From: Miltoncostaea sp. | Lineage (GTDB): Bacteria; Actinomycetota; Thermoleophilia; Miltoncostaeales; Miltoncostaeaceae | DNA length: 34,364 bases | Direction: 5' to 3' | NCBI GenBank assembly: GCA_029288175.1 | Contig: JARFPS010000260.1 | Location: 1-34,364, forward strand | Part shown: positions 11,895-22,387 of the stretch, piece by piece | Position numbering within the stretch: the stretch's first letter is position 1 | Layout: every line of letters begins with the position of its first letter | Made by a program: the position numbers and the translations under genes | The notes under the pieces: model-generated | Seen by the model: the letters and a program-made list of their open reading frames with translations, nothing else | What the model was told of the DNA's origin: nothing | Database searches by the model: none

Positions 11895-12706
11895 CGGACA
11901 AATCCTACGCGGTGTGGCTCGGCCGGAGACCTCAACAGGCCCGCGCCGGCCGCCGCCTCGAGAAAGCGCGCCAGCCCCTCTCGCTCGTCCGGGCCGAAGT
12001 CGTAGTGCAGTCGCGCCAGGTAGTCCCTCACGAACTCCGGCGTGAACCGGAAGCGGCGACTGGCCGCCTCCACGACGACGGCCGGCTCCGCCGAGTATCC
12101 GGTCCGCGCGCCCTGGATCAGCTCCGCGAGGGCGGACAGCTCGTGCGGGCGATCGCGGGCCACCTCGGCGCGAGCGGCCCACACCGCGAACACCATCGGC
12201 TGACCGGTCAGGGCGTGCCACCTCTCGGCCAGGTCCGTGTGGAAGAACCCCAGTCGCTCGCGGAGGCCGAACAGCGCCTCATCGCCGATGAGGAGCACAC
12301 CGTCATGGCTGCGCAGCGCCGTCCGGGGATCGGTCGTCAGCAGCTCGAAAGGGGGCCGGTCCGGGCCCAGCAGCAGGCGCAGCAGCGTCACCGACGTGGC
12401 GCTGTCCGGCGTGACGGCGATGGTCTCGACCTCGTCGAAGGGGACGTTGCTGAACAGCTGGATGCTGTCGACCGCACCCCGGGCGGTGACCGACGAGACC
12501 GGCAGGAGGGTGAGCAGGTCGGAGTTGCGGGCGTAGGCGATGCTCGAGACCGCCGACACATCGAGCTCGCCCGCCAGCAGCGCGTTGTTGAGGGTGGTCG
12601 GTGGACCGTCCAAGAACTCGATACCGTGCTGCGCGCGCTCGAGCCCGTGGTAGATGGGGTACATGTTCAGGGCCGCGATGCGCCCCACCCGCAGCGGCGC
12701 GCTCAC
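11891..12706 (-). CDS. mqnA: Chorismate dehydratase (MqnA)
   Basis: 271 residues from GTG 12706, overlapping the previous stop by 4 bases (GTGA) and overlapping mqnC at its end (ATGA). MqnA removes water from chorismate to give 3-enolpyruvylbenzoate, the entry step of the futalosine route. It has the periplasmic-binding-protein fold; visible family stretches are RVGRIAALNMYPIYHGL (about 6-22), LDVSAVSSIAYARN (about 48-61, the Ser-rich active-site strand), VTPDSATSVTLLRLLL and LLIGDEAL. The length matches the family (about 270-290). MqnE, which would use its product, is not in the window. Confidence 0.93.
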   Translation of the reverse strand: MSAPLRVGRIAALNMYPIYHGLERAQHGIEFLDGPPTTLNNALLAGELDVSAVSSIAYARNSDLLTLLPVSSVTARGAVDSIQLFSNVPFDEVETIAVTPDSATSVTLLRLLLGPDRPPFELLTTDPRTALRSHDGVLLIGDEALFGLRERLGFFHTDLAERWHALTGQPMVFAVWAARAEVARDRPHELSALAELIQGARTGYSAEPAVVVEAASRRFRFTPEFVRDYLARLHYDFGPDEREGLARFLEAAAGAGLLRSPAEPHRVGFVR

Positions 12707-13251
12707 CGCTCCACCGCCCGTGCTCCGACGGCCGTGGCCAGGTGGTTCGGGTCGCTGCGGTCATCGTCGGGCAGCTGCCACTCATCGGCGCCGAAGGCCA
12801 CCGCGACCTGGCAGGCGGCCGGACCCAGCCGACGCCAGTGTGGCCGCACCCGGACATCGCCGGGGAGGGCCGCTCGCGCGGCGCGGACCACCCCGAGATC
12901 CTCGACCCCCCAGGAGCCGGGGCGCCGGTCGTCGCCCTCGCCCGGCACGGGACACACCGCGCGGAGCAGCCCGGTCTCGCGAGCGAGCTCGCCGAGCGCC
13001 AGCAGCCGATCGACGACGAGCTCGGGGTCCGTGCCCGCCCCGTAGGCCAATGCGGCCTCGCTGCCCCTCCCGGATGCGTGCGCGGCCCGATGGTCCTCGA
13101 TCGAGCCCTCCTCGTCGCCGTCCCGCAACCGGTCGTCGGGGCTCGGCCCCCGGCCGTAGGCCACCACCGCGTCCGACACCCCGCCCAGGGCGGTGACGCC
13201 CTCGCCCCGGACCAGCGCGATCAGGACGTCCCGACCCGGCACGCCGCTCAC
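12703..13251 (-). CDS. Half-size MqnC/MqnE-like protein without the Fe-S region
   Basis: 182 residues from GTG 13251, which overlaps the prenyl synthase stop (GTGA); its own stop overlaps mqnA (GTGA). No named family was recognised, but it aligns with the C-terminal half of MqnC in this window. RAAHASGRGSEAALAYG (55-71) matches RTAHLAGLSASATMMYG. DPELVVDRLLALGELARETG (75-94) matches DTWEDRVEHLRRLREVQDET. RPHWRRLGPAACQVAVAFGA (136-155) matches the MqnC/MqnE stretch ending in GQLALEFGC. The region that should hold the CxxxCxxC motif is absent, and only two scattered cysteines remain (100, 147). It cannot be a radical SAM enzyme by itself. Its position suggests a helper of MqnA, MqnC or MqnE; this is inference. 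Confidence 0.8.
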   Translation of the reverse strand: MSGVPGRDVLIALVRGEGVTALGGVSDAVVAYGRGPSPDDRLRDGDEEGSIEDHRAAHASGRGSEAALAYGAGTDPELVVDRLLALGELARETGLLRAVCPVPGEGDDRRPGSWGVEDLGVVRAARAALPGDVRVRPHWRRLGPAACQVAVAFGADEWQLPDDDRSDPNHLATAVGARAVER

Positions 13252-14183
13252 GCGTACCGGTCCACGAGGCTGTCGGCGATCAGGCGCAGGGCGTCCCGGT
13301 CGGCCCCGCCCAACGGCCCCTCGAGCGCACGCCGCGCGTCGTCCACGAACCCCAGCGCCCGCTCCCGTGCCTGCGCCAGCCCCGCGTGGGCCGCGAGCCG
13401 GTCGCAGAGCGTCGCGACATCGTCCTCGGAGCGAGCCGCCGCCAGGAGCGGTCGGAGCGCGGGTTCCTCGCGAAGCGCGAGGATCACCGGCAGCGTCACG
13501 GTGCCGTCCATCAGATCCGTCCCGCGGCGCTTTCCGGTCACCTCCGGGGCGCCCGCCAGGTCGAGGATGTCGTCGAAGATCTGGAACGCCATCCCCACGT
13601 TCTGGCCGAACGCGCCCAGGCGCTCGGCGGCCTCGTCGGGTGAGCCCGCCACCAGGGCGCCCAGTCGGCACGCGCACGAGAAGAGCGCGGCGGTCTTTCG
13701 GCGGCACCGGTCGAGGTAGTCGCGCTCGGCGAGGTCCAGATCGTGAGCGGCCCGGTTCTGGTCCATCTCGCCCATCGAAAGGTCCAGCGCGGCGCCCGCA
13801 AGGGTCTGGACCGCGGCGGCGCTGCCGGTCCGGGTCAGCTCGGCGAACGCCCGCGCGAACAGGAAGTCGCCCGCTTGGACGGCCACCTCGGCCCCCTCGG
13901 CGGCCGCCACGGTGGGCCGGCCGCGCCGCATCGTCGCGCCGTCGATGAGATCGTCGTGCACCAGCGTGGCCATGTGCACCAGCTCGACCGAGGCCGCCGC
14001 CGACAGCACGGCCTCGCTCTCCACGCGGTCCTGGGGCGCCGAGCAGAACACCAGCAGCGGGCGCACGCGCTTGCCGCCGGCGGCCAGGGTGTCGGCCGCC
14101 GGTCGGGCCACCTCGGGCACGCTGCCGTCGACCGCCGACTCGAGGCGTTCCTCGCAGGCGGCGAGCAGTCGCGCCTGCGGCAG
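13248..14183 (-). CDS. All-trans polyprenyl diphosphate synthase, probably for the menaquinone tail
   Basis: About 311 residues if read from CTG 14183. The enzyme joins isopentenyl diphosphate units to make the C30-C45 menaquinone side chain. The hallmarks are AGGKRVRP (the IPP-binding region), the first aspartate motif HDDLID followed by GATMRRGRPT, the GDFLFARAF helix, and the second aspartate motif FDDILDL. The C-terminus RYA is near the usual length. The start is unclear: no ATG, GTG or TTG occurs in frame between the menG stop (14213) and GTG 14120, yet the first family helix (LPQARLLAACEERLE) begins near 14183. ATC 14198 is another rare candidate; GTG 14120 would drop the helix. Its end overlaps the next gene by GTGA. 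Confidence 0.92.
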   Translation of the reverse strand: MPQARLLAACEERLESAVDGSVPEVARPAADTLAAGGKRVRPLLVFCSAPQDRVESEAVLSAAASVELVHMATLVHDDLIDGATMRRGRPTVAAAEGAEVAVQAGDFLFARAFAELTRTGSAAAVQTLAGAALDLSMGEMDQNRAAHDLDLAERDYLDRCRRKTAALFSCACRLGALVAGSPDEAAERLGAFGQNVGMAFQIFDDILDLAGAPEVTGKRRGTDLMDGTVTLPVILALREEPALRPLLAAARSEDDVATLCDRLAAHAGLAQARERALGFVDDARRALEGPLGGADRDALRLIADSLVDRYA

Positions 14184-14212: not shown

Positions 14213-14932
14213 CTACGGTCGCACCCGCCCGTGATGGAGGGCCACGATGCCCCCGGCGAAGGTGCGCCAGCGCACGTCGCCGAGGCCCGCTCCGGCGAGG
14301 CGGGCCGCCAGCTCCGGAGGGGCGGGAAAGCGCCGCACCGACGCCGGCAGGTAGCGATACGCGTCGGCGTCGCGTCCGAGAAGCGCGCCGAGGCGGGGTA
14401 CGAGGCGATCGAACCACACCCCGTAGAAGCGCTGCAGGTGGGCGGGCACGGTGATCTCGAGCACGACCACGCGACCCCCGGGGCGGACCACCCGGGCCAT
14501 CTCGTGAAGACCGCCGTCCAGGTCCACGACGTTGCGGATGCCGAACGCCACCGTGGCGGCGTCGAACGCATCGTCGGGATGGTCGAGGTTCATGACGTCC
14601 CCGACCTCGAAGCGCAGCCCGGGGCGATCGCCGGCCTTCTCGTCGGCCCGGGCGATCATCCTCTCCGAGAAATCGATCCCCACGACCTCGCCGCCCGGCG
14701 TGCGGTCGGCGAGGTCGAAGGCCAGGTCGCCCGTGCCGGTGCAGCAGTCGAGGGCGCGGTCGCCCGCCGCCAGGTCGGCGGCCGCCGCGGCCGCCCGGCG
14801 CCAGGCGCGATCGCGGCCGGCGGTCATCAGCCGGTTCATCAGGTCGTAGCGCGGTGCGATGCGGTCGAACATCGCTCTGACGTCCGCGGGTGCGAGGCGG
14901 CCCGAGGCGGCGTCGCTGACGGGCGCGCTCAT
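14213..14932 (-). CDS. menG: Demethylmenaquinone methyltransferase (MenG/UbiE)
   Basis: 239 residues from ATG 14932, overlapping the ubiX stop (ATGA). It methylates the quinone ring with S-adenosylmethionine, the last step of menaquinone synthesis. The UbiE signatures are APRYDLMNRLMTAGRDRAWR (about 26-45), the SAM-binding LDCCTGTGDLAFDLA, GIDFSERMIARADEK, and AFGIRNVVDLDGGLHEMARV followed by RPGG. The length is typical (about 230-250). With mqnA and mqnC in the same unit and no ubiquinone-specific gene seen, menaquinone is the expected substrate. Confidence 0.94.
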   Translation of the reverse strand: MSAPVSDAASGRLAPADVRAMFDRIAPRYDLMNRLMTAGRDRAWRRAAAAAADLAAGDRALDCCTGTGDLAFDLADRTPGGEVVGIDFSERMIARADEKAGDRPGLRFEVGDVMNLDHPDDAFDAATVAFGIRNVVDLDGGLHEMARVVRPGGRVVVLEITVPAHLQRFYGVWFDRLVPRLGALLGRDADAYRYLPASVRRFPAPPELAARLAGAGLGDVRWRTFAGGIVALHHGRVRP

Positions 14933-15555
14933 CGGGCGGCCGGTTCCACCGGCGCCTCGCCCCATCGCAGGAGCAGGCTGTGCGACACGCCGATGGCGTC
15001 GAGCGCCTTGCCCACGACGAAGTCGATCAGGTCGTCCATGCCTCCCGGAAGGCCATAGAAGCCGGGGCTCGCGGGCATCACCATGGCGCCGGCGCGGGTG
15101 ACCGAGGCCATGTTCTCGATGGCGATCAGCGACAGCGGCGTCTCGCGTGTCACCAGCACCAGGGGCCGTCGCTCCTTCAGGGCCACGTCGGCGGCGCGAT
15201 GGATCAGGTTGGCGGCGGTGCCGTGCGCGATCGCCCCGAGGCTCGACCCCGAGCACGGGAGCACCAGCACGCCACCCGCGCGAGCCGATCCCGATGCGAA
15301 CGGGCTGGTCATGTCGTGGAGGTCGAGCAGCGTGACCTGTCCCGGCGACCCGTGCGCCTCGACGAATCGCTCCACCACCTCGCCGGGGTCGCCCGGGCGC
15401 TCGGGCCCGCGCCCGAGCAGCTCGTGCGAGATGACGTGCGCCCCGCTGTGGGAGACACACAAGCCCACGTCGCACCCGGCCGCGCAGAGCGCCGACAGCG
15501 CCCGCGCCGCATAGGGGGCGCCGCTCGCGCCGGTGACCCCGAGAAAGACCCTCAT
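14929..15555 (-). CDS. ubiX: UbiX-type flavin prenyltransferase (MqnM-like)
   Basis: 208 residues from ATG 15555. UbiX attaches a dimethylallyl group to FMN to make prenylated FMN, the cofactor of UbiD-type decarboxylases. The family stretches are GVTGASGAPYAARAL (7-21), LPCSGSSLGAIAHGTAANLI (99-118) and a Pro-Leu-rich VTRETPLSLIAIENM. In the futalosine route the UbiX/UbiD-like pair (MqnM/MqnL) removes the carboxyl group of the prenylated naphthoate, and the partner UbiD lies at 18063-19514. The gene opens the second transcription unit, with a TACGAT box 6 bases before its ATG and no ribosome-binding site. Confidence 0.94.
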   Translation of the reverse strand: MRVFLGVTGASGAPYAARALSALCAAGCDVGLCVSHSGAHVISHELLGRGPERPGDPGEVVERFVEAHGSPGQVTLLDLHDMTSPFASGSARAGGVLVLPCSGSSLGAIAHGTAANLIHRAADVALKERRPLVLVTRETPLSLIAIENMASVTRAGAMVMPASPGFYGLPGGMDDLIDFVVGKALDAIGVSHSLLLRWGEAPVEPAAR

Positions 15556-15613: not shown

Positions 15614-16360
15614 CTATCTGAACTCGGTGCCGAGCCCGTTCAGGAAGACCGCGAGCTCCTGGTACTCCTGGTCCGTGAAGTTCGGATAGGCCGGCATTGT
15701 CGATCCCGGCGTGGTCGACCGGGGATCGATCAGGTGGTCGATCTGCCACTGGATGGTCCGGCCCTTCTCGCCTTCGTTGGTGAGGTTGGGTCCGGGGCCC
15801 GGCGCTCCGACGTCCTTGATGGCGTGGCACGCCGTGCAGCCGTTGGCCAGATAGAGCTCGAGACCCGCTTCCGCCTCGGGGGTGAGGTTCTCCAGCTCGA
15901 TGCCGGTCTCGGCGCCCGGCGACTCGGCGCCGAGGTGCGTGAGGTAGCCGAGGAAGAAGATCACCATGACGCCCGAGGTGAGCGCGATCGGCCGGCGCCA
16001 GATGCGCCGCTCGGGCCCGCGGTCGATGAACGGGGTGATGAGCAGCAGCACCATCAGAACGTTCGGGACGATGAACGTCGCCATGATCACCGGGGTGAGC
16101 GCGTTCTCGTTCTTGAAGATCTTCAGCAGCTCGAAGAGGAAGAAGAAGTACCACTCGGGCCGCGGGACGAAGTCGGTGGTGGCGGGGTTGACCGGCTCGC
16201 CGACCGGGATCGGCGCCCAGATCGCCAGGAAGATGACGAAGCCGATGGCGAAGGTCGCCACGACGAGGTCCTTGTAGACCGCGTAGGGAAAGAACGGCTT
16301 CCCCTGCGCCTTGGCGAGCGCGTAATCGCGCTTGTATGCCTCTTGCTCGCCCTTGTTCAT
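15614..16360 (-). CDS. Cytochrome b C-terminal half fused to cytochrome c (QcrC-like)
   Basis: 248 residues from ATG 16360, overlapping the cytochrome b stop (ATGA). Residues about 30-142 hold three membrane helices corresponding to subunit IV of cytochrome b6f, with the quinol-site motif PEWY (68-71). Residues about 158-248 are a cytochrome c domain with the heme-binding motif C175-TA-CH179 and a likely axial ligand Met near 222 (STMPAYP). Such a b-c fusion is known from Bacillus-type menaquinol:cytochrome c reductases, where it passes electrons from the Rieske protein outward. It is the third and last gene of the bc complex here; it carries only one heme c site, unlike the two-heme QcrC of mycobacteria. 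Confidence 0.93.
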   Translation of the reverse strand: MNKGEQEAYKRDYALAKAQGKPFFPYAVYKDLVVATFAIGFVIFLAIWAPIPVGEPVNPATTDFVPRPEWYFFFLFELLKIFKNENALTPVIMATFIVPNVLMVLLLITPFIDRGPERRIWRRPIALTSGVMVIFFLGYLTHLGAESPGAETGIELENLTPEAEAGLELYLANGCTACHAIKDVGAPGPGPNLTNEGEKGRTIQWQIDHLIDPRSTTPGSTMPAYPNFTDQEYQELAVFLNGLGTEFR

Positions 16361-17250
16361 GACACGTCCTTGCTGGGCCAGGACTGCGGCGGCTCAAACG
16401 AGGGCGAGGCGGGCACCGGCTCGCGCCCGGCGGGCGTGCGGGCCCGCATGCGCTCGCGCTCGGCCTCCTCCTCGCGGGCGGCCCGGAAGCGGCGCTTGGC
16501 CCACGGGGGCTCCGCGATGCCGAGCTTGGTGATGAGGAGCAGGTGCAGCGCGATGAAGGTGGCGATGCCCCCGGGGATCACCAGCATGTGGATCGCGTAG
16601 AAACGGCTGAGCGTGTTGGGGCCGAACTCCGGTCCCGCGCGGAGGATGTCGGCGACGAAGGGGCCGAGCACCGGGGCGCTCGCGGTGATGTTCACCGCGA
16701 CGACCGTGGCCCAGTAGGCCTTCTGGTCCCAGACCAGCAGGTAGCCCGTCAGGCCCATGAACATGGTCATGAACATCAGGATGACGCCGGTCACCCAGGT
16801 CAGCTCCCGCGGGTACTTGTAGGCGCCCCAGAAGAACACGCGCGCCATGTGCAGGAACACCACGACGATCATGGCGCTGGCGCCCCAACGGTGCATGCCG
16901 CGCACCAGGGAGCCCCACGTCGCGTCGTTGGTGATGAACTGGATGCTCTGGAACGCCGTGTTCGGGTCGGGCTTGTAGTACATGGCCAGCACGATGCCGG
17001 TGATGGCCTGGAGCCCGAACAGCGCCATTGCCGTGAAGCCCAGCGTCTGGAACCAGCTCGTCTCGCCGGGGACGTTGCGGAACAGGAACCACTTGTGCCC
17101 GGTGACCAGACCGCTGCGCTCGTCGACGTAGTCGCCGGTCTTCTCGATGGCCCCCTTCATGGCGCCCTTGGGGGCGATGTCCTCCGCTCCGACCGCGGCG
17201 CCCTCGCCGTCGGGCGACGGCGTCTGGGTCTCGATGTCCTGTGTGCTCAT
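16357..17250 (-). CDS. qcrB: Cytochrome b6-type subunit of the menaquinol:cytochrome c reductase
   Basis: 297 residues from ATG 17250. It is the two-heme core of the bc complex and oxidises menaquinol. Four membrane helices carry the heme ligands: H120 and H134 (13 apart, within MHRWGASAMIVVVFLHM) and H221 and H236 (14 apart, within IHMLVIPGGIATFIALHLLL). The 14-residue spacing in the second pair is the b6-type pattern. It is shorter than actinobacterial QcrB of mycobacteria (about 540), because the C-terminal helices are in the next gene. The N-terminal 50 residues are a polar tail without homology. It starts 12 bases after the Rieske gene. Confidence 0.94.
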   Translation of the reverse strand: MSTQDIETQTPSPDGEGAAVGAEDIAPKGAMKGAIEKTGDYVDERSGLVTGHKWFLFRNVPGETSWFQTLGFTAMALFGLQAITGIVLAMYYKPDPNTAFQSIQFITNDATWGSLVRGMHRWGASAMIVVVFLHMARVFFWGAYKYPRELTWVTGVILMFMTMFMGLTGYLLVWDQKAYWATVVAVNITASAPVLGPFVADILRAGPEFGPNTLSRFYAIHMLVIPGGIATFIALHLLLITKLGIAEPPWAKRRFRAAREEEAERERMRARTPAGREPVPASPSFEPPQSWPSKDVS

Positions 17251-17262
17251 CCTGGGCCTCGC

Positions 17263-17955
17263 CTAGAACGGGTAGAGGTTGGAGAGCGCGCCAGTGACCG
17301 GCTCGCCGGGGCCGTGAAGTCGGTAGGGCTGGAGCTCGTCGTCGACCGAGAACGGCACGCCCACCATCAGGCGGTCCTCGTCGGACGCGTCGGCGAGCCC
17401 GGCGGGGTCGCTGCGACGGGCGACCTGCTGGCCGTCCGGCGTCACGACCATCCAGTCGAAACGGTCGAGCGGGCGGGCGGGCGGTCCGGCGGTGACGATG
17501 CCCTCGGAGTCGTAGGCGCCGCCGTGGCACGGGCACGCGTAGCCGTCGCTGCCCGAGTTGTAGGTCACCGGGCAGCCGAGGTGCGTGCAGCGGTTCCACA
17601 GCATCGCCAGCTCCTCGCCGCGCCGGCGGACGAAGACGCGCCGGTCGGACTCGGGTGCGGGGCCGGATACCGCGATGGAGCTCGTCTCCTCCTCGGGGAA
17701 CTGGCTCAACGGGCCGATGTCCACCCACTGGGCCGGCTCGTCCTTGAGGGAGTCGGCGACGGCGAAGCCCACCACGGGCACCAGGATGGCCCCGGTCATG
17801 ACCGCACCGGTCGCGATCGCCACGCCGCTGAGGAACTTGGTGCGGGTGATGAACGCGGGGTCGGCGTGCGGATCGTTCTCTTCGACGGGATCGTGAGCAC
17901 GTGGGCCGACATAGCGGCCGCCGTTCGTCCCGTCCGGATCCTGTTGGCTCGTCAC
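17263..17955 (-). CDS. qcrA: Rieske iron-sulphur protein of the bc complex
   Basis: 230 residues from GTG 17955 with an AGGGGGAG ribosome-binding site. It moves electrons from menaquinol to cytochrome c through a 2Fe-2S cluster held by C123-T-H125-L-G-C128 and C141-P-C143-H144. The single membrane anchor is about residues 41-68 ([25 protein letters not shown]). Rieske proteins are usually exported by the Tat system, but the expected twin-arginine reads TRTKFL (37-42), with Thr in place of the second Arg. A 107-base gap separates it from the ubiD-type gene, holding a repeat pair (17999-18029). Confidence 0.94.
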
Positions 17956-18062: not shown

Positions 18063-19514
18063 TCATTCGGAGCCCCCGCGCCCCGTCTCGATGCCGAATT
18101 CGTGCCATCGGCGATCGACCCGCGAGCGGATCTCCTCGCTCATGGTGATCTCTTGTGGCCACGGCCGCACGATGCCCTCTCCCGGCCACTTCCGCGTTGC
18201 GTCGAAGCCGACCTTGGCGCCCAGGGCGAAGTGGGGCGCGGCGTGGTCCAGCGCGTCCACCGGCCCCTCGGTGAGCAGCATGTCCCGTCCGGCGTCCACG
18301 TTCGAGAAGGCGCGGAAGGCCACATCGGACAGGTCGTGCACGTCCACGTCGGCGTCCACCACCACCACGCACCGGGTCAGGGACAACAGCCCCAGTCCCC
18401 AGATCGCGTTCATGAGCTTCTTGGCATGCCCCGGGTAGCGCTTCTCGACCGACACGATGGCGCAGTTGTGGAAGACCCCTTCGAGCGGGAGGTTCATGTC
18501 GACGAGGTCGGGCACGGTCGTCCTGATGAGCGGGAGGAAGATCCGCTCGGTGGCCTTGCCGAGGAAGAAGTCCTCCATGGGCGGCTTGCCGACGATCGTC
18601 GTGGCGTAGACGGCCTCCCGTCGCATGGACATGCCGGTCACGTGCAGGGTCGGGTAGTCGTCCACCGGGGTGTAGAAGCCCGTGTGGTCGCCGAAGGGTC
18701 CCTCGGGCCGCAGGTCGTGAGCGTCGACGTAGCCCTCGATGACGATCTCGCTCTCGGCGGGCACCTCCACGTCGACCGTGCGACAGGGGACCATCCGCAC
18801 GCTGCGCCCGCCGAGGAAGCCGGCGAACAGCATCTCGTCGATGCCCGGCGGAAGCGGGGCGCTGGCGCTGTAGGTCGTGGCCGGGGCGGTGCCGATGGCG
18901 ATCGCCACCTCGACCCGCCCTTGCGAGTCGCGCAGGTGGGCGGCCCCGTCCTTGTGGATCTGCCAGTGCATCATCGCCGTGCGCTCGTCGACCACCTGGA
19001 TGCGGTACATGCCGCAGTAGCGCACGCCGGTGGTGGGGTCCTGGCTGCAGACCAGCGGCAGGGTGATGAAGGGGCCGCCGTCGTCGGGCCAGCAGGTCAG
19101 CACCGGAAGGCGCGTCAGGTCGGGTGGGTCGACCCAGACCTCCTGGCACGGCGCCGAGGTGACGTTCTTGGGCGAGAACGAGGCGAGCTGGCGGAGCGTG
19201 CCCAGCGCGCGCACCTTGGCGGCGATGCCCTGTGGGGGCTGGAGCTCGAGCAGGTCCGTGATCCGACCCCCGACGGCGTCGAGGCTCTCGGTGTTCAGCG
19301 CCATGTTCATGCGCTTCTCGCTGCCGAACTGGTTGATCAGCACGGGAAGCTCGCTGCCGAGCACGTCGTGGAACAGCAGGGCGGGTCCGCCGGCCTTGCT
19401 GACGCGGTCGGTGATCTCGGTGATCTCGAGCTCCGGGTCGACCGGGGCCCGGACGTCCACCAGCTCACCCTCCTTGCGGAGGCGATCGATCCAGCTGCGC
19501 AGATCGGTGCTCAT
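18063..19514 (-). CDS. UbiD-family prenylated-FMN decarboxylase (MqnL-like)
   Basis: 483 residues from ATG 19514, overlapping the previous stop (ATGA). UbiD enzymes remove an aromatic carboxyl group with prenylated FMN made by UbiX. The family features are LINQFGSEKRMNMALN (about 59-74), PVLTCWPDDGGPFITLP, MYRIQVVDERTAMMHWQ and the active-site stretch GPFGDHTGFY. The length is typical (about 450-500). Since the route here is futalosine-based, the substrate is probably the 1,4-dihydroxy-6-naphthoate derivative after prenylation (MqnL role), not 4-hydroxybenzoate. It sits between the half-size prenyl-synthase relative and the bc genes. Confidence 0.92.
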   Translation of the reverse strand: MSTDLRSWIDRLRKEGELVDVRAPVDPELEITEITDRVSKAGGPALLFHDVLGSELPVLINQFGSEKRMNMALNTESLDAVGGRITDLLELQPPQGIAAKVRALGTLRQLASFSPKNVTSAPCQEVWVDPPDLTRLPVLTCWPDDGGPFITLPLVCSQDPTTGVRYCGMYRIQVVDERTAMMHWQIHKDGAAHLRDSQGRVEVAIAIGTAPATTYSASAPLPPGIDEMLFAGFLGGRSVRMVPCRTVDVEVPAESEIVIEGYVDAHDLRPEGPFGDHTGFYTPVDDYPTLHVTGMSMRREAVYATTIVGKPPMEDFFLGKATERIFLPLIRTTVPDLVDMNLPLEGVFHNCAIVSVEKRYPGHAKKLMNAIWGLGLLSLTRCVVVVDADVDVHDLSDVAFRAFSNVDAGRDMLLTEGPVDALDHAAPHFALGAKVGFDATRKWPGEGIVRPWPQEITMSEEIRSRVDRRWHEFGIETGRGGSE

Positions 19515-20026
19515 GCGGTCAGCGCCTCCTTGAGGCCGGGGGTCGGGCCGAGGGTCGCGGCCAGGGTCAGCAGCGGCTCGCCGTCCTCGCCCGCTCCGAG
19601 CCCCGCGGTGGCTGTCAGGAAGTCCTCGCGGCGCGCCCGCGCCCCGTTCGCGGAGCCGACGATGGCGGCCACGGTGGCCCTCCAGGCGGGCTCGAGCAGG
19701 TCGCGTCGCTCGCGCGCGACGAGCTCCGCGCTTACGGCGATCAGGGCCGACAGGGCCTCGATCACGAACAGATCGCCCGCGGCGGCTACCCGCACCAGGC
19801 CGGTGGCGTAGCAGTAGTCGCCCGCCAGGACGCGCTGCCCGGCGTCGTCGATGTCGAGATAGCGGGGCCGCCCGTGGTGCAGCAGGAATCCCTCGAGGAT
19901 CAGGTCCAAGCCCTCCGCTTCGATCGGCGACAGCGCGGCGTGGGCCAGCGGCGCCAGCAGGGGCTCGGGCGACGGGGCGCGCAGCGATCCGGACAGGCTC
20001 GGCTCGGCGAGCAGCGCGTCCCTCAC
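19511..20026 (-). CDS. Half-size relative of polyprenyl diphosphate synthase lacking the DDxxD motif
   Basis: 171 residues from GTG 20026, overlapping the hemL stop (GTGA) and the ubiD-type start (ATGA). No named family was recognised, but it aligns with the middle of the prenyl synthase in this window (13248-14183). LDLILEGFLLHHGRP (40-54) stands against HDDLIDGATMRRGRP, so the aspartate motif is lost. AGDYCYATGLVRVAAAGD (68-85) stands against AGDFLFARAFAELTRTGS. The protein is mostly helical and has no second aspartate motif, so it cannot make prenyl diphosphate alone. Two-part heptaprenyl and hexaprenyl synthases of Bacillus and Micrococcus use a small non-catalytic partner that sets chain length, and this gene could be such a subunit. 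That role is inference. Confidence 0.8.
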   Translation of the reverse strand: MRDALLAEPSLSGSLRAPSPEPLLAPLAHAALSPIEAEGLDLILEGFLLHHGRPRYLDIDDAGQRVLAGDYCYATGLVRVAAAGDLFVIEALSALIAVSAELVARERRDLLEPAWRATVAAIVGSANGARARREDFLTATAGLGAGEDGEPLLTLAATLGPTPGLKEALTA

Positions 20027-21279
20027 GCCAGGGCCTCCGCGGCCGCCGCCAGCGCGTCGCCCGTGGCGGCCAGGTCGGCCTCGTCGTGGGCGGCGCTGAC
20101 GAACCACGCTTCGTACTGGGACGGCGGTGGGTAGACCCCGGCATCGAGCAGAGCCCGCGCGAAGGCTCCGAATGCGTCGGTGTCGCTCCGCGTGGCCGAT
20201 GCGTAGTCGCTCACGGGGCCGTCCTGGAAGAAGGCCGTCATCATCGCCCCCACCCGGTTGATCACCACGGGGGCGCCGCTGGCCAGAACGGCGTCCTCCA
20301 GCGCCGCGGAGGTCTGCTCCAGGCGGTCGTAGAAGCCCGGCTCGGCCAGCGCGGCCAGCGTGGCCATGCCTGCCGCGGTGGCCAGCGGATTCCCCGAGAG
20401 CGTGCCGGCCTGGTAGCAGGGGCCCTCCGGCGCCAGGTGCTCCATCACGTCTCTCCGCCCCCCGAACGCACCCACGGGCAGTCCGCCGCCGATGATCTTT
20501 CCAAGGCACGTGATGTCGGCTCGCACCCCGTAGCGCTCCTGGGCGCCTCCGCGGGCGACGCGGAAGCCGGTCATGACCTCGTCGAAGATCAGCAGCGCCC
20601 CGGTGGCGTCGCAGGCGGCGCGAAGGCCCTCGAGGTACCCCGGGGCCGGCGGCACCACGCCCATGTTCCCCGCCACCGGCTCGACGATGATCGCGGCAGC
20701 TCCGCGGAGGGCCTCCTCGGCCGCGGCGACGTCGTTGTAGGGGACCAGACGGGTGGCCGCCGTCGCGCCCTCGGGGACCCCCGGGCTGGTGGGCACGCCG
20801 AGCGTGGTGGCGCCGCTGCCGGCTTCGGCCAGCATTCCGTCGATCGCGCCGTGGTAGCCGCCCTCGGTCTTCACGATCACCTCGCGGCCGGTGGCGGCCC
20901 GGGCGATGCGCAGCGCGCCGGCGACGGCCTCGCCCCCGGAGCTGGTCATGCGCAACAGCTCGATGGACGGCACCGCCTCCACCACCATCTCGGCGAAGAC
21001 CACCTCGGCCTCGGTCGGCGCGCCGAACGAGGTGCCCCCGGCGAGCGCCTCGCGCACGGCATCGAGCACCGCCGGGTGGGCGTGGCCGAGGATGGCCGGC
21101 CCCCAGGTGCCGAGGTAGTCGATGTAGCGGCGGCCGTCGGCGTCCCAGAGGTGGGCGCCCTCGGCGCGCGCGATGAACAGCGGATCCCGGCCGATGGAGC
21201 GCATGGCGCGGACCGGCGAGTTGACGCCGCCCACGAGCACCCGGCGCGCCCGGCCGTGCAGGTCGTCGCTGCGGCTCAC
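20023..21279 (-). CDS. hemL: Glutamate-1-semialdehyde 2,1-aminomutase
   Basis: 418 residues from GTG 21279, 13 bases after the previous stop. The PLP enzyme makes 5-aminolevulinate from glutamate semialdehyde (C5 route of tetrapyrrole synthesis). Family stretches are VGGVNSPVRAM (16-26), YIDYLGTWGPAILGH, the cofactor-contacting LIFDEVMTGFR, and the PLP lysine in LGKIIGGGLPVGAFGG. The C-terminal GVYPPPSQYEAWFVSAAH is characteristic. One oddity: the usual NSGTEA phosphate-binding loop reads SSGGEA (near residues 112-117). hemA is not in the window. It follows ahbAB in the same unit and its end overlaps the next gene. Confidence 0.95.
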   Translation of the reverse strand: MSRSDDLHGRARRVLVGGVNSPVRAMRSIGRDPLFIARAEGAHLWDADGRRYIDYLGTWGPAILGHAHPAVLDAVREALAGGTSFGAPTEAEVVFAEMVVEAVPSIELLRMTSSGGEAVAGALRIARAATGREVIVKTEGGYHGAIDGMLAEAGSGATTLGVPTSPGVPEGATAATRLVPYNDVAAAEEALRGAAAIIVEPVAGNMGVVPPAPGYLEGLRAACDATGALLIFDEVMTGFRVARGGAQERYGVRADITCLGKIIGGGLPVGAFGGRRDVMEHLAPEGPCYQAGTLSGNPLATAAGMATLAALAEPGFYDRLEQTSAALEDAVLASGAPVVINRVGAMMTAFFQDGPVSDYASATRSDTDAFGAFARALLDAGVYPPPSQYEAWFVSAAHDEADLAATGDALAAAAEALA

Positions 21280-21292
21280 CGAACCGCCGGGC

Positions 21293-22387
21293 TCACGCCC
21301 GCGTCCAGCGCGGCAGCTCCCCGCCCGACAGCGCGAACTCTTCCCACTCGCGGTACTCGGGGGTGTAGTAGACGAGCCGGATCTTCTTGAACTCCAGCGT
21401 GGAGTACAGGACGGCCCGCTGGTCGGGATCGTCCAGGCCGCTGTCGGCGGCGATGGCCTCGATGGTCTCCTCGCAGGCGTCCATGGACGTGGAGTGCACC
21501 ATCGTGAACAGGTTGTAGGGCCAGTCGGGGTAGGTGGGCCGCCGGTAGCAGTGCGACACGGCCTTGAAGGCGGCCATGCGCGGGCCCAGCTCCTCGAGTC
21601 GCTCCTCGGGCACCTTCCACACGGCCATCCCGTTGGCGCCGAAGCCGGCGCGCCGGTGGTTGAGCACCGCTGCGAAGCGCCGCATGTAGGTGCGCTCCGC
21701 GAAGGTCTCCGCCGCCCCCAGGATCTCGCCGACCGAGCGTCCGGACTCCTCGGCCCAGACGTCGAAGGGCGCGGAGGTGAGGGGCAGGTCGCGCTGCAGA
21801 ATCTGGATGAACTCCTTGTCGCGCTCGGTGGGCAGCGCTCCGTCGCCGCGCTGCGGCGCCTTGCGGGGCGCGTCCTCCTTGGCCGTGTTGTCCTGCGAGC
21901 CGGTCATGTCGAGCTGGACGTTGATCTTGTAGAGCTTCAGCGTGGGGAGCAGCCGCATCGACTCCGCCCCGCTCGCCTCCTGCAGCTTGTCCACCGTCGC
22001 CTCGAGCCCCAGTCGCGACTCGGGCTCCACGGCCACGGTGAACCAGAGGTTGAACGCGTGCGTGCGCCGGTAGTTGTGGCTCACGCCAGGGTGTCCGCCG
22101 ACGATCGCGGCGCCTTCGAACAGCTTGTCCTCGGGGTAGCGGGCCGCCACCAGCGAGCTCTCATACCCGAGCGCCCGCGTGTCGAAGATGGCGGACACCT
22201 GGCGCACGATGCCGCCCTCCTTCAGGCGGGTCATGCGCTCGAGCACCTCGTCCTCGCTCAGGCCGATGCGCTCGCCCACCTCGCGATAGGGGTGCGGCAC
22301 CAGGGCGATGCCGGCCTGCAGCGCGTTGAGCAGGTCGCGGTCGACCTCGTCGGGCTTGTGGCGGGGCGATGCGGGCGCGGTGGTCAC
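21293..22387 (-). CDS. ahbAB: Fused AhbA/AhbB-type siroheme decarboxylase (Lrp/AsnC family)
   Basis: 364 residues from GTG 22387, overlapping the hemB stop (GTGA). The protein is two Lrp/AsnC-like units in tandem, each a winged helix plus a ferredoxin-like domain: about 13-165 and 185-345, joined by a charged linker (165-185). Each unit carries the family's siroheme-decarboxylase motif: SHNYRRTHAFNLWFTV (103-118) and SHCYRRPTYPDWPYNLFTMV (278-297), with the tyrosine and arginine that handle the propionate side chains. AhbA and AhbB are normally separate proteins that make 12,18-didecarboxysiroheme in the siroheme-dependent heme route; here they are one chain. The winged helices may be structural only. 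Position between hemB and hemL supports the heme role. NirDL-type heme d1 enzymes are related and cannot be ruled out. Confidence 0.88.
   Translation of the reverse strand: MTTAPASPRHKPDEVDRDLLNALQAGIALVPHPYREVGERIGLSEDEVLERMTRLKEGGIVRQVSAIFDTRALGYESSLVAARYPEDKLFEGAAIVGGHPGVSHNYRRTHAFNLWFTVAVEPESRLGLEATVDKLQEASGAESMRLLPTLKLYKINVQLDMTGSQDNTAKEDAPRKAPQRGDGALPTERDKEFIQILQRDLPLTSAPFDVWAEESGRSVGEILGAAETFAERTYMRRFAAVLNHRRAGFGANGMAVWKVPEERLEELGPRMAAFKAVSHCYRRPTYPDWPYNLFTMVHSTSMDACEETIEAIAADSGLDDPDQRAVLYSTLEFKKIRLVYYTPEYREWEEFALSGGELPRWTRA

What the first reader, a model, noticed from the sequence alone, without database searches (positions are those of the whole stretch)
19511..20026. A DDxxD-less half-size prenyl synthase relative between hemL and the UbiD-type gene
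The 171-residue protein aligns with the middle of the polyprenyl synthase 5 kb away: LDLILEGFLLHHGRP against HDDLIDGATMRRGRP, and AGDYCYATGL against AGDFLFARAF. Both aspartates that bind diphosphate are changed, and the second aspartate motif is absent. Its start and stop both overlap neighbours by 4 bases, which suggests a conserved, coordinated product. Heteromeric menaquinone-tail synthases (Bacillus HepS/HepT, Micrococcus hexaprenyl synthase) have a small non-catalytic partner; this could be an independent actinobacterial version encoded in a different operon. It could instead bind the prenyl tail for the UbiD-type enzyme.
Basis: partly seen in the sequence, partly recalled or inferred. 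Interest (0 to 1): 0.78.

Follow-up and report, generated by a model that had tools for sequence, protein, structure and literature searches.

The report
Hidden small subunit for menaquinone tails
A short unnamed gene, found throughout one large class of actinobacteria, very probably encodes the inactive helper half of the two-part enzyme that builds the long greasy tail of the respiratory quinone (vitamin K2).

Summary
The 171-aa protein is real and conserved: 180 of 200 near-complete genomes of its class carry it, usually just after hemL. It is a remote, shortened isoprenyl diphosphate synthase (IDS). Its profile finds only IDSs in the PDB, matches the neighbouring long-chain synthase far above shuffled and unrelated controls, and links through dead IDS paralogues in other actinobacterial classes (PF00348 significant, both Asp motifs gone). 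The AlphaFold model (pLDDT 97) is all-helical, and Foldseek's top hits are IDSs, though weakly scored. The most conserved helices include E and F, the IDS dimer interface; the DDxxD loop is deleted and the second Asp motif is absent.

Genome distribution separates the candidate partners. Family f4 keeps UbiD and MenG orthologues but lost both this gene and the HepT-like synthase. MenD-pathway lineages lack UbiD but keep both. So the gene follows the tail synthase, not UbiD.

Best reading: the non-catalytic small subunit of a heteromeric long-chain (probably C35) prenyl diphosphate synthase, working like Bacillus HepS or Micrococcus HexA, in a family that Pfam and NCBIfam do not model. Binding and activity are inferred, not shown. 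Novelty: new variant of a known kind.

The parts
19511..20026 (-). 171-aa small-subunit gene ('FAM'): helix D 34-51, helix E 62-81, helix F 86-104, helix G 108-126 on the AlphaFold model; no DDxxD, no second Asp motif
   Evidence: translation; AF2 pLDDT 97; profile and fold searches; conserved in 180 of 200 class genomes
13248..14183 (-). HepT-like long-chain polyprenyl diphosphate synthase, proposed catalytic large subunit (start codon uncertain)
   Evidence: PF00348 2.4e-64; best NCBIfam model TIGR02748 HepT, 229 bits, below its 457-bit cut-off; co-retained with FAM
20023..21279 (-). hemL, upstream neighbour, stop overlaps FAM start
   Evidence: TIGR00713 540 bits, over cut-off
18063..19514 (-). 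UbiD-type menaquinone (futalosine route) decarboxylase, start overlaps FAM stop
   Evidence: TIGR03701 604 bits, over cut-off
14213..14932 (-). menG/ubiE methyltransferase, directly before the large subunit
   Evidence: TIGR01934 218 bits, over cut-off
14929..15555 (-). ubiX flavin prenyltransferase
   Evidence: TIGR00421 166 bits, over cut-off
15614..17955 (-). quinol:cytochrome c reductase genes (cytochrome b C-terminal/cytochrome c, cytochrome b, Rieske)
   Evidence: Pfam PF00032/PF00034, PF00033, PF00355

Best explanation
The 19511-20026 product is the non-catalytic small subunit of a heteromeric trans-long-chain prenyl diphosphate synthase whose catalytic subunit is the 13248-14183 product. 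It is a decayed IDS: helices D to G survive, the first Asp-rich loop is deleted and everything from the second Asp motif on is gone. It would pair through helices E and F with the HepT-like subunit in place of a second catalytic protomer, stabilise it, and help form the hydrophobic pocket that sets tail length (probably C35 for menaquinone-7). Shown here by computation: conservation, homology to IDSs, loss of catalytic motifs, fold, co-retention with the synthase independent of UbiD and of the head-group pathway. Inferred: physical heteromer, need for activity, chain-length role.
For: Family profile versus PDB: all 18 hits at E<=10 are IDSs, best E 0.005, including HepS 9kp1_A. Profile-profile match to the neighbouring synthase E 5e-6 to 2e-5, against 200 shuffles (maximum score 22 versus 41) and unrelated neighbouring families at E 0.05 or worse. 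The profile independently finds that synthase in the window's own genome at E 6.7e-4. Bridging paralogues in other actinobacterial classes match both FAM and IDS (hhalign 4e-21; PF00348 1.7e-10, over cut-off), have no Asp motifs, lie close to the HepT-like synthase, and fold as IDS with HepT 9kp1_B as top PDB hit, E 7e-8. AF2 model pLDDT 97 with IDSs in nearly all of the 50 Foldseek rows shown. [quoted passage not shown]). In 200 class genomes FAM and the synthase orthologue agree in 193 (175 both, 18 neither; Fisher 3e-19, not corrected for phylogeny). Family f4 lost both while keeping adjacent UbiD and MenG orthologues, and the prenyl synthase typed there is IdsA-like. In f6 the two genes lie on different contigs, e.g. 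G056 C3 versus C1, yet both are kept.
Against: No physical interaction or complex model could be tested. Foldseek matches of the 171-aa model are specific but weak (best E 0.044, TM 0.4-0.56) and neither HepS nor HexA appears in the 50 rows shown. Most homology significance comes from one segment (helices D to F). G409 has the synthase but no detectable FAM; G047, G479 and G483 have FAM but no detected synthase orthologue (assembly gaps not excluded). f4 loss is probably a single event, so the Fisher value overstates independence. The catalytic subunit's HepT score is below the equivalog cut-off.
Confidence: 0.82

Rival explanations
1. It is a partner of the UbiD-type decarboxylase, holding the prenyl tail of its substrate; the 4-base overlaps reflect that pairing.
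For: In the window's family the gene is directly followed by ubiD with overlapping or near-overlapping codons.
Against: The f5 and f7 genomes tested and two of three f19 genomes have the gene but no UbiD orthologue, and have MenD instead; family f4 keeps UbiD without the gene.
Confidence: 0.04
2. It is a dead IDS homologue that binds prenyl diphosphate or prenyl quinone for another step (UbiA-type prenyltransferase, MenG, or the neighbouring bc complex), a carrier or regulator rather than a synthase subunit.
For: It sits in a cluster of quinone and quinol-oxidase genes; a decayed IDS could keep prenyl binding.
Against: f4 keeps MenG without it; co-loss is with the HepT-like synthase; conservation is in interface helices; known small dead IDS partners act as synthase subunits. 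The UbiA-type prenyltransferase was not tested.
Confidence: 0.1
3. It is unrelated to IDSs and the LAGDY/GRP resemblance is convergence in an all-helical protein.
For: Single-sequence BLASTP is only E 0.010; no Pfam or NCBIfam hit.
Against: Profile controls, PDB specificity, bridging paralogues that are IDSs.
Confidence: 0.03

Closest known systems
HepS, small subunit of Bacillus heptaprenyl diphosphate synthase (PF07307; PDB 9kp1_A)
   Same: Non-catalytic, IDS-derived, keeps the LAGDY helix after a short linker with no DDxxD loop, partner of a HepT-like subunit, menaquinone tail; profile match E 2-4e-4, and 1e-5 through the bridging paralogues.
   Different: PF07307 does not recognise the family; 171 aa instead of 251; encoded beside hemL and ubiD, kilobases from the large subunit.
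HexA, small subunit of Micrococcus luteus B-P 26 hexaprenyl diphosphate synthase (with HexB, 3aqb)
   Same: Small subunit that may help set product length, beside a large subunit that holds the Asp-rich motifs (PMC7839719).
   Different: HexA was not among the PDB sequence hits or the Foldseek rows shown; relation to HexA not demonstrated.
Catalytic trans-IDS (PF00348), e.g. HepT, IspB, solanesyl diphosphate synthase
   Same: Helices D to G and the AGDxLxA motif; detectable homology.
   Different: Half length, first Asp-rich loop deleted, second absent, so no metal or diphosphate site.
Plant GPPS small subunit (SSU)
   Same: Lacks DDxxD and modulates a catalytic IDS (PMC7839719); mint GPPS chains among Foldseek hits.
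   Different: From a different lineage and larger; analogue rather than a demonstrated relative.

Membership tests
Catalytic trans-isoprenyl diphosphate synthase (PF00348) | First Asp-rich motif DDxx(xx)D | tested here: not met
   No motif at the right place in 41 FAM members (3 stray matches outside the helix-D region); 27 of 27 neighbouring synthases have it
Catalytic trans-isoprenyl diphosphate synthase (PF00348) | Second Asp-rich motif and C-terminal helices | tested here: not met
   Protein ends before that region in the alignment with the synthase
Catalytic trans-isoprenyl diphosphate synthase (PF00348) | Score over the Pfam cut-off | tested here: not met
   No PF00348 hit for the window protein or for any of 40 members
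IDS superfamily by descent | Detectable homology above controls and matching fold | tested here: met
   Foldseek for FAM itself is specific but weak
HepS / HEPPP_synt_1 (PF07307) | Score over the Pfam cut-off (30 bits) | tested here: not met
   0 of 61 relatives at E<=1 with B. subtilis control positive; one of 40 members at E 0.34
HepS / HEPPP_synt_1 (PF07307) | Profile-level homology to HepS | tested here: inconclusive
   FAM versus B. subtilis HepS E 2-4e-4, score 31 versus 17 at most in 100 shuffles, but only one HepS sequence was available
Heteromeric long-chain prenyl diphosphate synthase small subunit (functional class) | Genomic pairing with a HepT-like catalytic subunit | tested here: met
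   193 of 200 genomes agree; adjacent or close by in other classes
Heteromeric long-chain prenyl diphosphate synthase small subunit (functional class) | Binds the catalytic subunit and is needed for activity | not testable with these tools
   Needs complex prediction or biochemistry

The most novel reading that the evidence does not exclude
Deep-branching actinobacteria preserve a series from full-length dead IDS paralogues (283 aa, still PF00348) through 170-220 aa forms to about 144-aa minimal subunits, all paired with HepT-like synthases. HepS-type small subunits would then be one ancient lineage made by decay of a duplicated synthase and carried vertically, and quinone synthesis in this class would depend on an unannotated subunit that has moved into a haem-menaquinone cluster.
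Probability: 0.35. Interest if true: 0.62.

Novelty: new variant of a known kind. Interest (0 to 1): 0.52.

Why it matters
A gene present in about 90% of near-complete genomes of a whole bacterial class, with no hit in Pfam or NCBIfam, gets a testable function in respiratory quinone synthesis. Anyone expressing the catalytic subunit alone might find it inactive or of the wrong chain length. The bridging paralogues also give a direct view of how a catalytic enzyme subunit decays into a helper subunit.

Tried and rejected
UbiD partnership: rejected by distribution in both directions. Single-sequence homology: too weak alone. PF07307 search in relatives: nothing. Foldseek on the 171-aa model: no E below 0.001, so not used as sole proof. 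The HexPS structure paper is not held. Literature searches found no paper describing this actinobacterial subunit; absence from an open-access library is weak evidence. G409 was checked for a missed gene: none upstream of its ubiD. Circularity noted: the bridging (BRI) and f19 (RUB) sequences were found with the FAM profile, so FAM-BRI and FAM-RUB scores are partly selected; BRI-IDS, BRI-HepS and FAM-IDS scores are not. The HepS query sequence was recalled and then verified as matching PDB 9kp1_A almost residue for residue.

Full report
WHAT IS THERE. The gene lies on the minus strand (20026 to 19511), starts with GTG inside the hemL stop and ends inside the ubiD start. It is one member of a co-directional run: hemB, a fused siroheme decarboxylase (AhbA+AhbB), hemL, this gene (FAM), ubiD, Rieske, cytochrome b, cytochrome b/c, ubiX, menG, polyprenyl synthase, then further futalosine-route genes including mqnC. 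The source is a 2.0-Mb, 81%-complete genome in 306 contigs; the only named relative found is a Thermoleophilia MAG.

IS IT REAL. A 171-aa query finds 86 of 101 relatives; the family profile finds 180 of 200 genomes in the class drawn at 90% completeness or more. The alignment has invariant E45, G46, L48, H50, R55, L67, G69, D70, G76 and W115. HemL upstream and UbiD or Rieske downstream recur across loci.

WHAT IT IS RELATED TO. No Pfam or NCBIfam model hits it. As a profile against all PDB chains, every one of 18 matches at E<=10 is an isoprenyl diphosphate synthase (IDS), including Bacillus HepS 9kp1_A. Profile-profile comparison with the neighbouring synthase gives E 5e-6 to 1.7e-5, score 41-46; 200 column shuffles reach 22 at most, and the ten unrelated neighbouring protein families reach 21 at most, E 0.05 or worse. 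The same profile run over the window's own genome finds, besides itself, that very synthase (E 6.7e-4). The alignment places GLDLILEGFLLH on AVELVHMATLVH (helix D) and deletes about ten residues that hold DDxxD, so the invariant His is followed mostly by Tyr or His instead of Asp.

BRIDGING FORMS. In other families of the phylum the profile finds 168-288-aa proteins close to a HepT-like synthase, often adjacent. The longer ones (L088, L120, L121) are themselves degenerate IDSs: L088 matches PF00348 at 1.7e-10, over its cut-off, none of the nine has an Asp motif, and the group matches the synthase profile at 4e-21 and HepS at 1e-5. The L088 model (pLDDT 71, moderate) has HepT 9kp1_B as its best PDB match, E 7e-8. 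These connect FAM to IDSs without relying on FAM's own weak pairwise signal.

FOLD. The AlphaFold model of the window protein has pLDDT 97 and pTM 0.92, all helices. Foldseek against PDB returns IDSs in nearly all of the 50 rows shown, but with best E 0.044 and TM mostly 0.4-0.56 normalised to the query: specific, not strong. Mean conservation is highest in helices D (2.56 bits), E (2.53) and F (1.91). Helices E and F make up the bulk of the IDS dimer interface (PMC4356374; PMC7261888).

WHICH PARTNER. The class gives a natural experiment. Best synthase scores are mostly bimodal: orthologues E below 1e-40, paralogues around 1e-20 to 1e-35. Over 200 genomes: both 175, neither 18, gene only 5, synthase only 2 (Fisher 3e-19; not corrected for relatedness). 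Of the exceptions, G019's contig begins inside ubiD, just where the gene would be; G073's contig ends inside menG; G092 has a synthase fragment; G409, G047, G479 and G483 remain unexplained. Family f4 (14 of the 18) lacks both; in the f4 genomes checked, orthologues of UbiD and MenG are kept side by side, though UbiD is only fragmentary in G089. The one f4 prenyl synthase typed is IdsA-like (243 bits versus 104 for HepT). The f5 and f7 genomes tested, and two of three f19 genomes, have no UbiD orthologue and have MenD over its cut-off, while the UbiD genomes tested lack MenD; the gene and the synthase persist in both pathways. In f6 the two genes sit on different contigs (for example G056 C3 and C1) and both are kept. 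In f19 genomes without UbiD the order is hemL, gene, menG, synthase. So the gene follows the tail synthase, not UbiD, MenG or the head-group route.

HOW IT MOST LIKELY WORKS. Inference from known heteromers: in HexPPS, HexB holds both Asp-rich motifs and HexA may set product length through the hydrophobic cavity, and HepS/HepT make C35 heptaprenyl diphosphate (PMC7839719). Cultured relatives (Conexibacter, Solirubrobacter; assigned to Thermoleophilia from general knowledge) make MK-7(H4) (PMC3035278, PMC10722151), so a C35 product is expected. The gene product would replace one protomer of the IDS dimer through helices E/F, with the HepT-like subunit doing catalysis. Binding, requirement and chain-length control were not tested.

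NAMING. It works like HepS/HexA. It is not a member of PF07307 by that model's threshold, and whether it descends from the same dead paralogue as HepS is open (FAM versus one HepS sequence, E 2-4e-4; bridging group versus HepS, 1e-5). I therefore class it as a new variant of a known kind.

Noticed in passing
window 21293-22387 (-): AhbA and AhbB siroheme decarboxylase subunits fused in one 364-aa protein between hemB and hemL; both halves are over their NCBIfam cut-offs. Suggests a siroheme-based haem route or regulator in this lineage.
   Followed up: no
relatives f1/f3/f4/f6 versus f5/f7, and f19: UbiD (futalosine route) and MenD (classical route) are mutually exclusive in the genomes searched for both, within one class and even within family f19.
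   Followed up: partly
family f4, e.g. L127:5161-6345: These genomes keep menaquinone head-group genes but mostly show a single trans-prenyl synthase match, IdsA-like in the one typed. How they make the quinone tail, and its length, is unclear.
   Followed up: partly
window 12703-13197 (-): Reading frame directly after the polyprenyl synthase with no Pfam match; by eye it recalls a C-terminal piece of an MqnC/MqnE-like radical SAM protein.
   Followed up: no
L128 (G409) 1-1172: A genome with the synthase but no detectable FAM; its ubiD is preceded by what looks by eye like a Phd/VapC-type toxin-antitoxin pair, suggesting an insertion or rearrangement there.
   Followed up: partly
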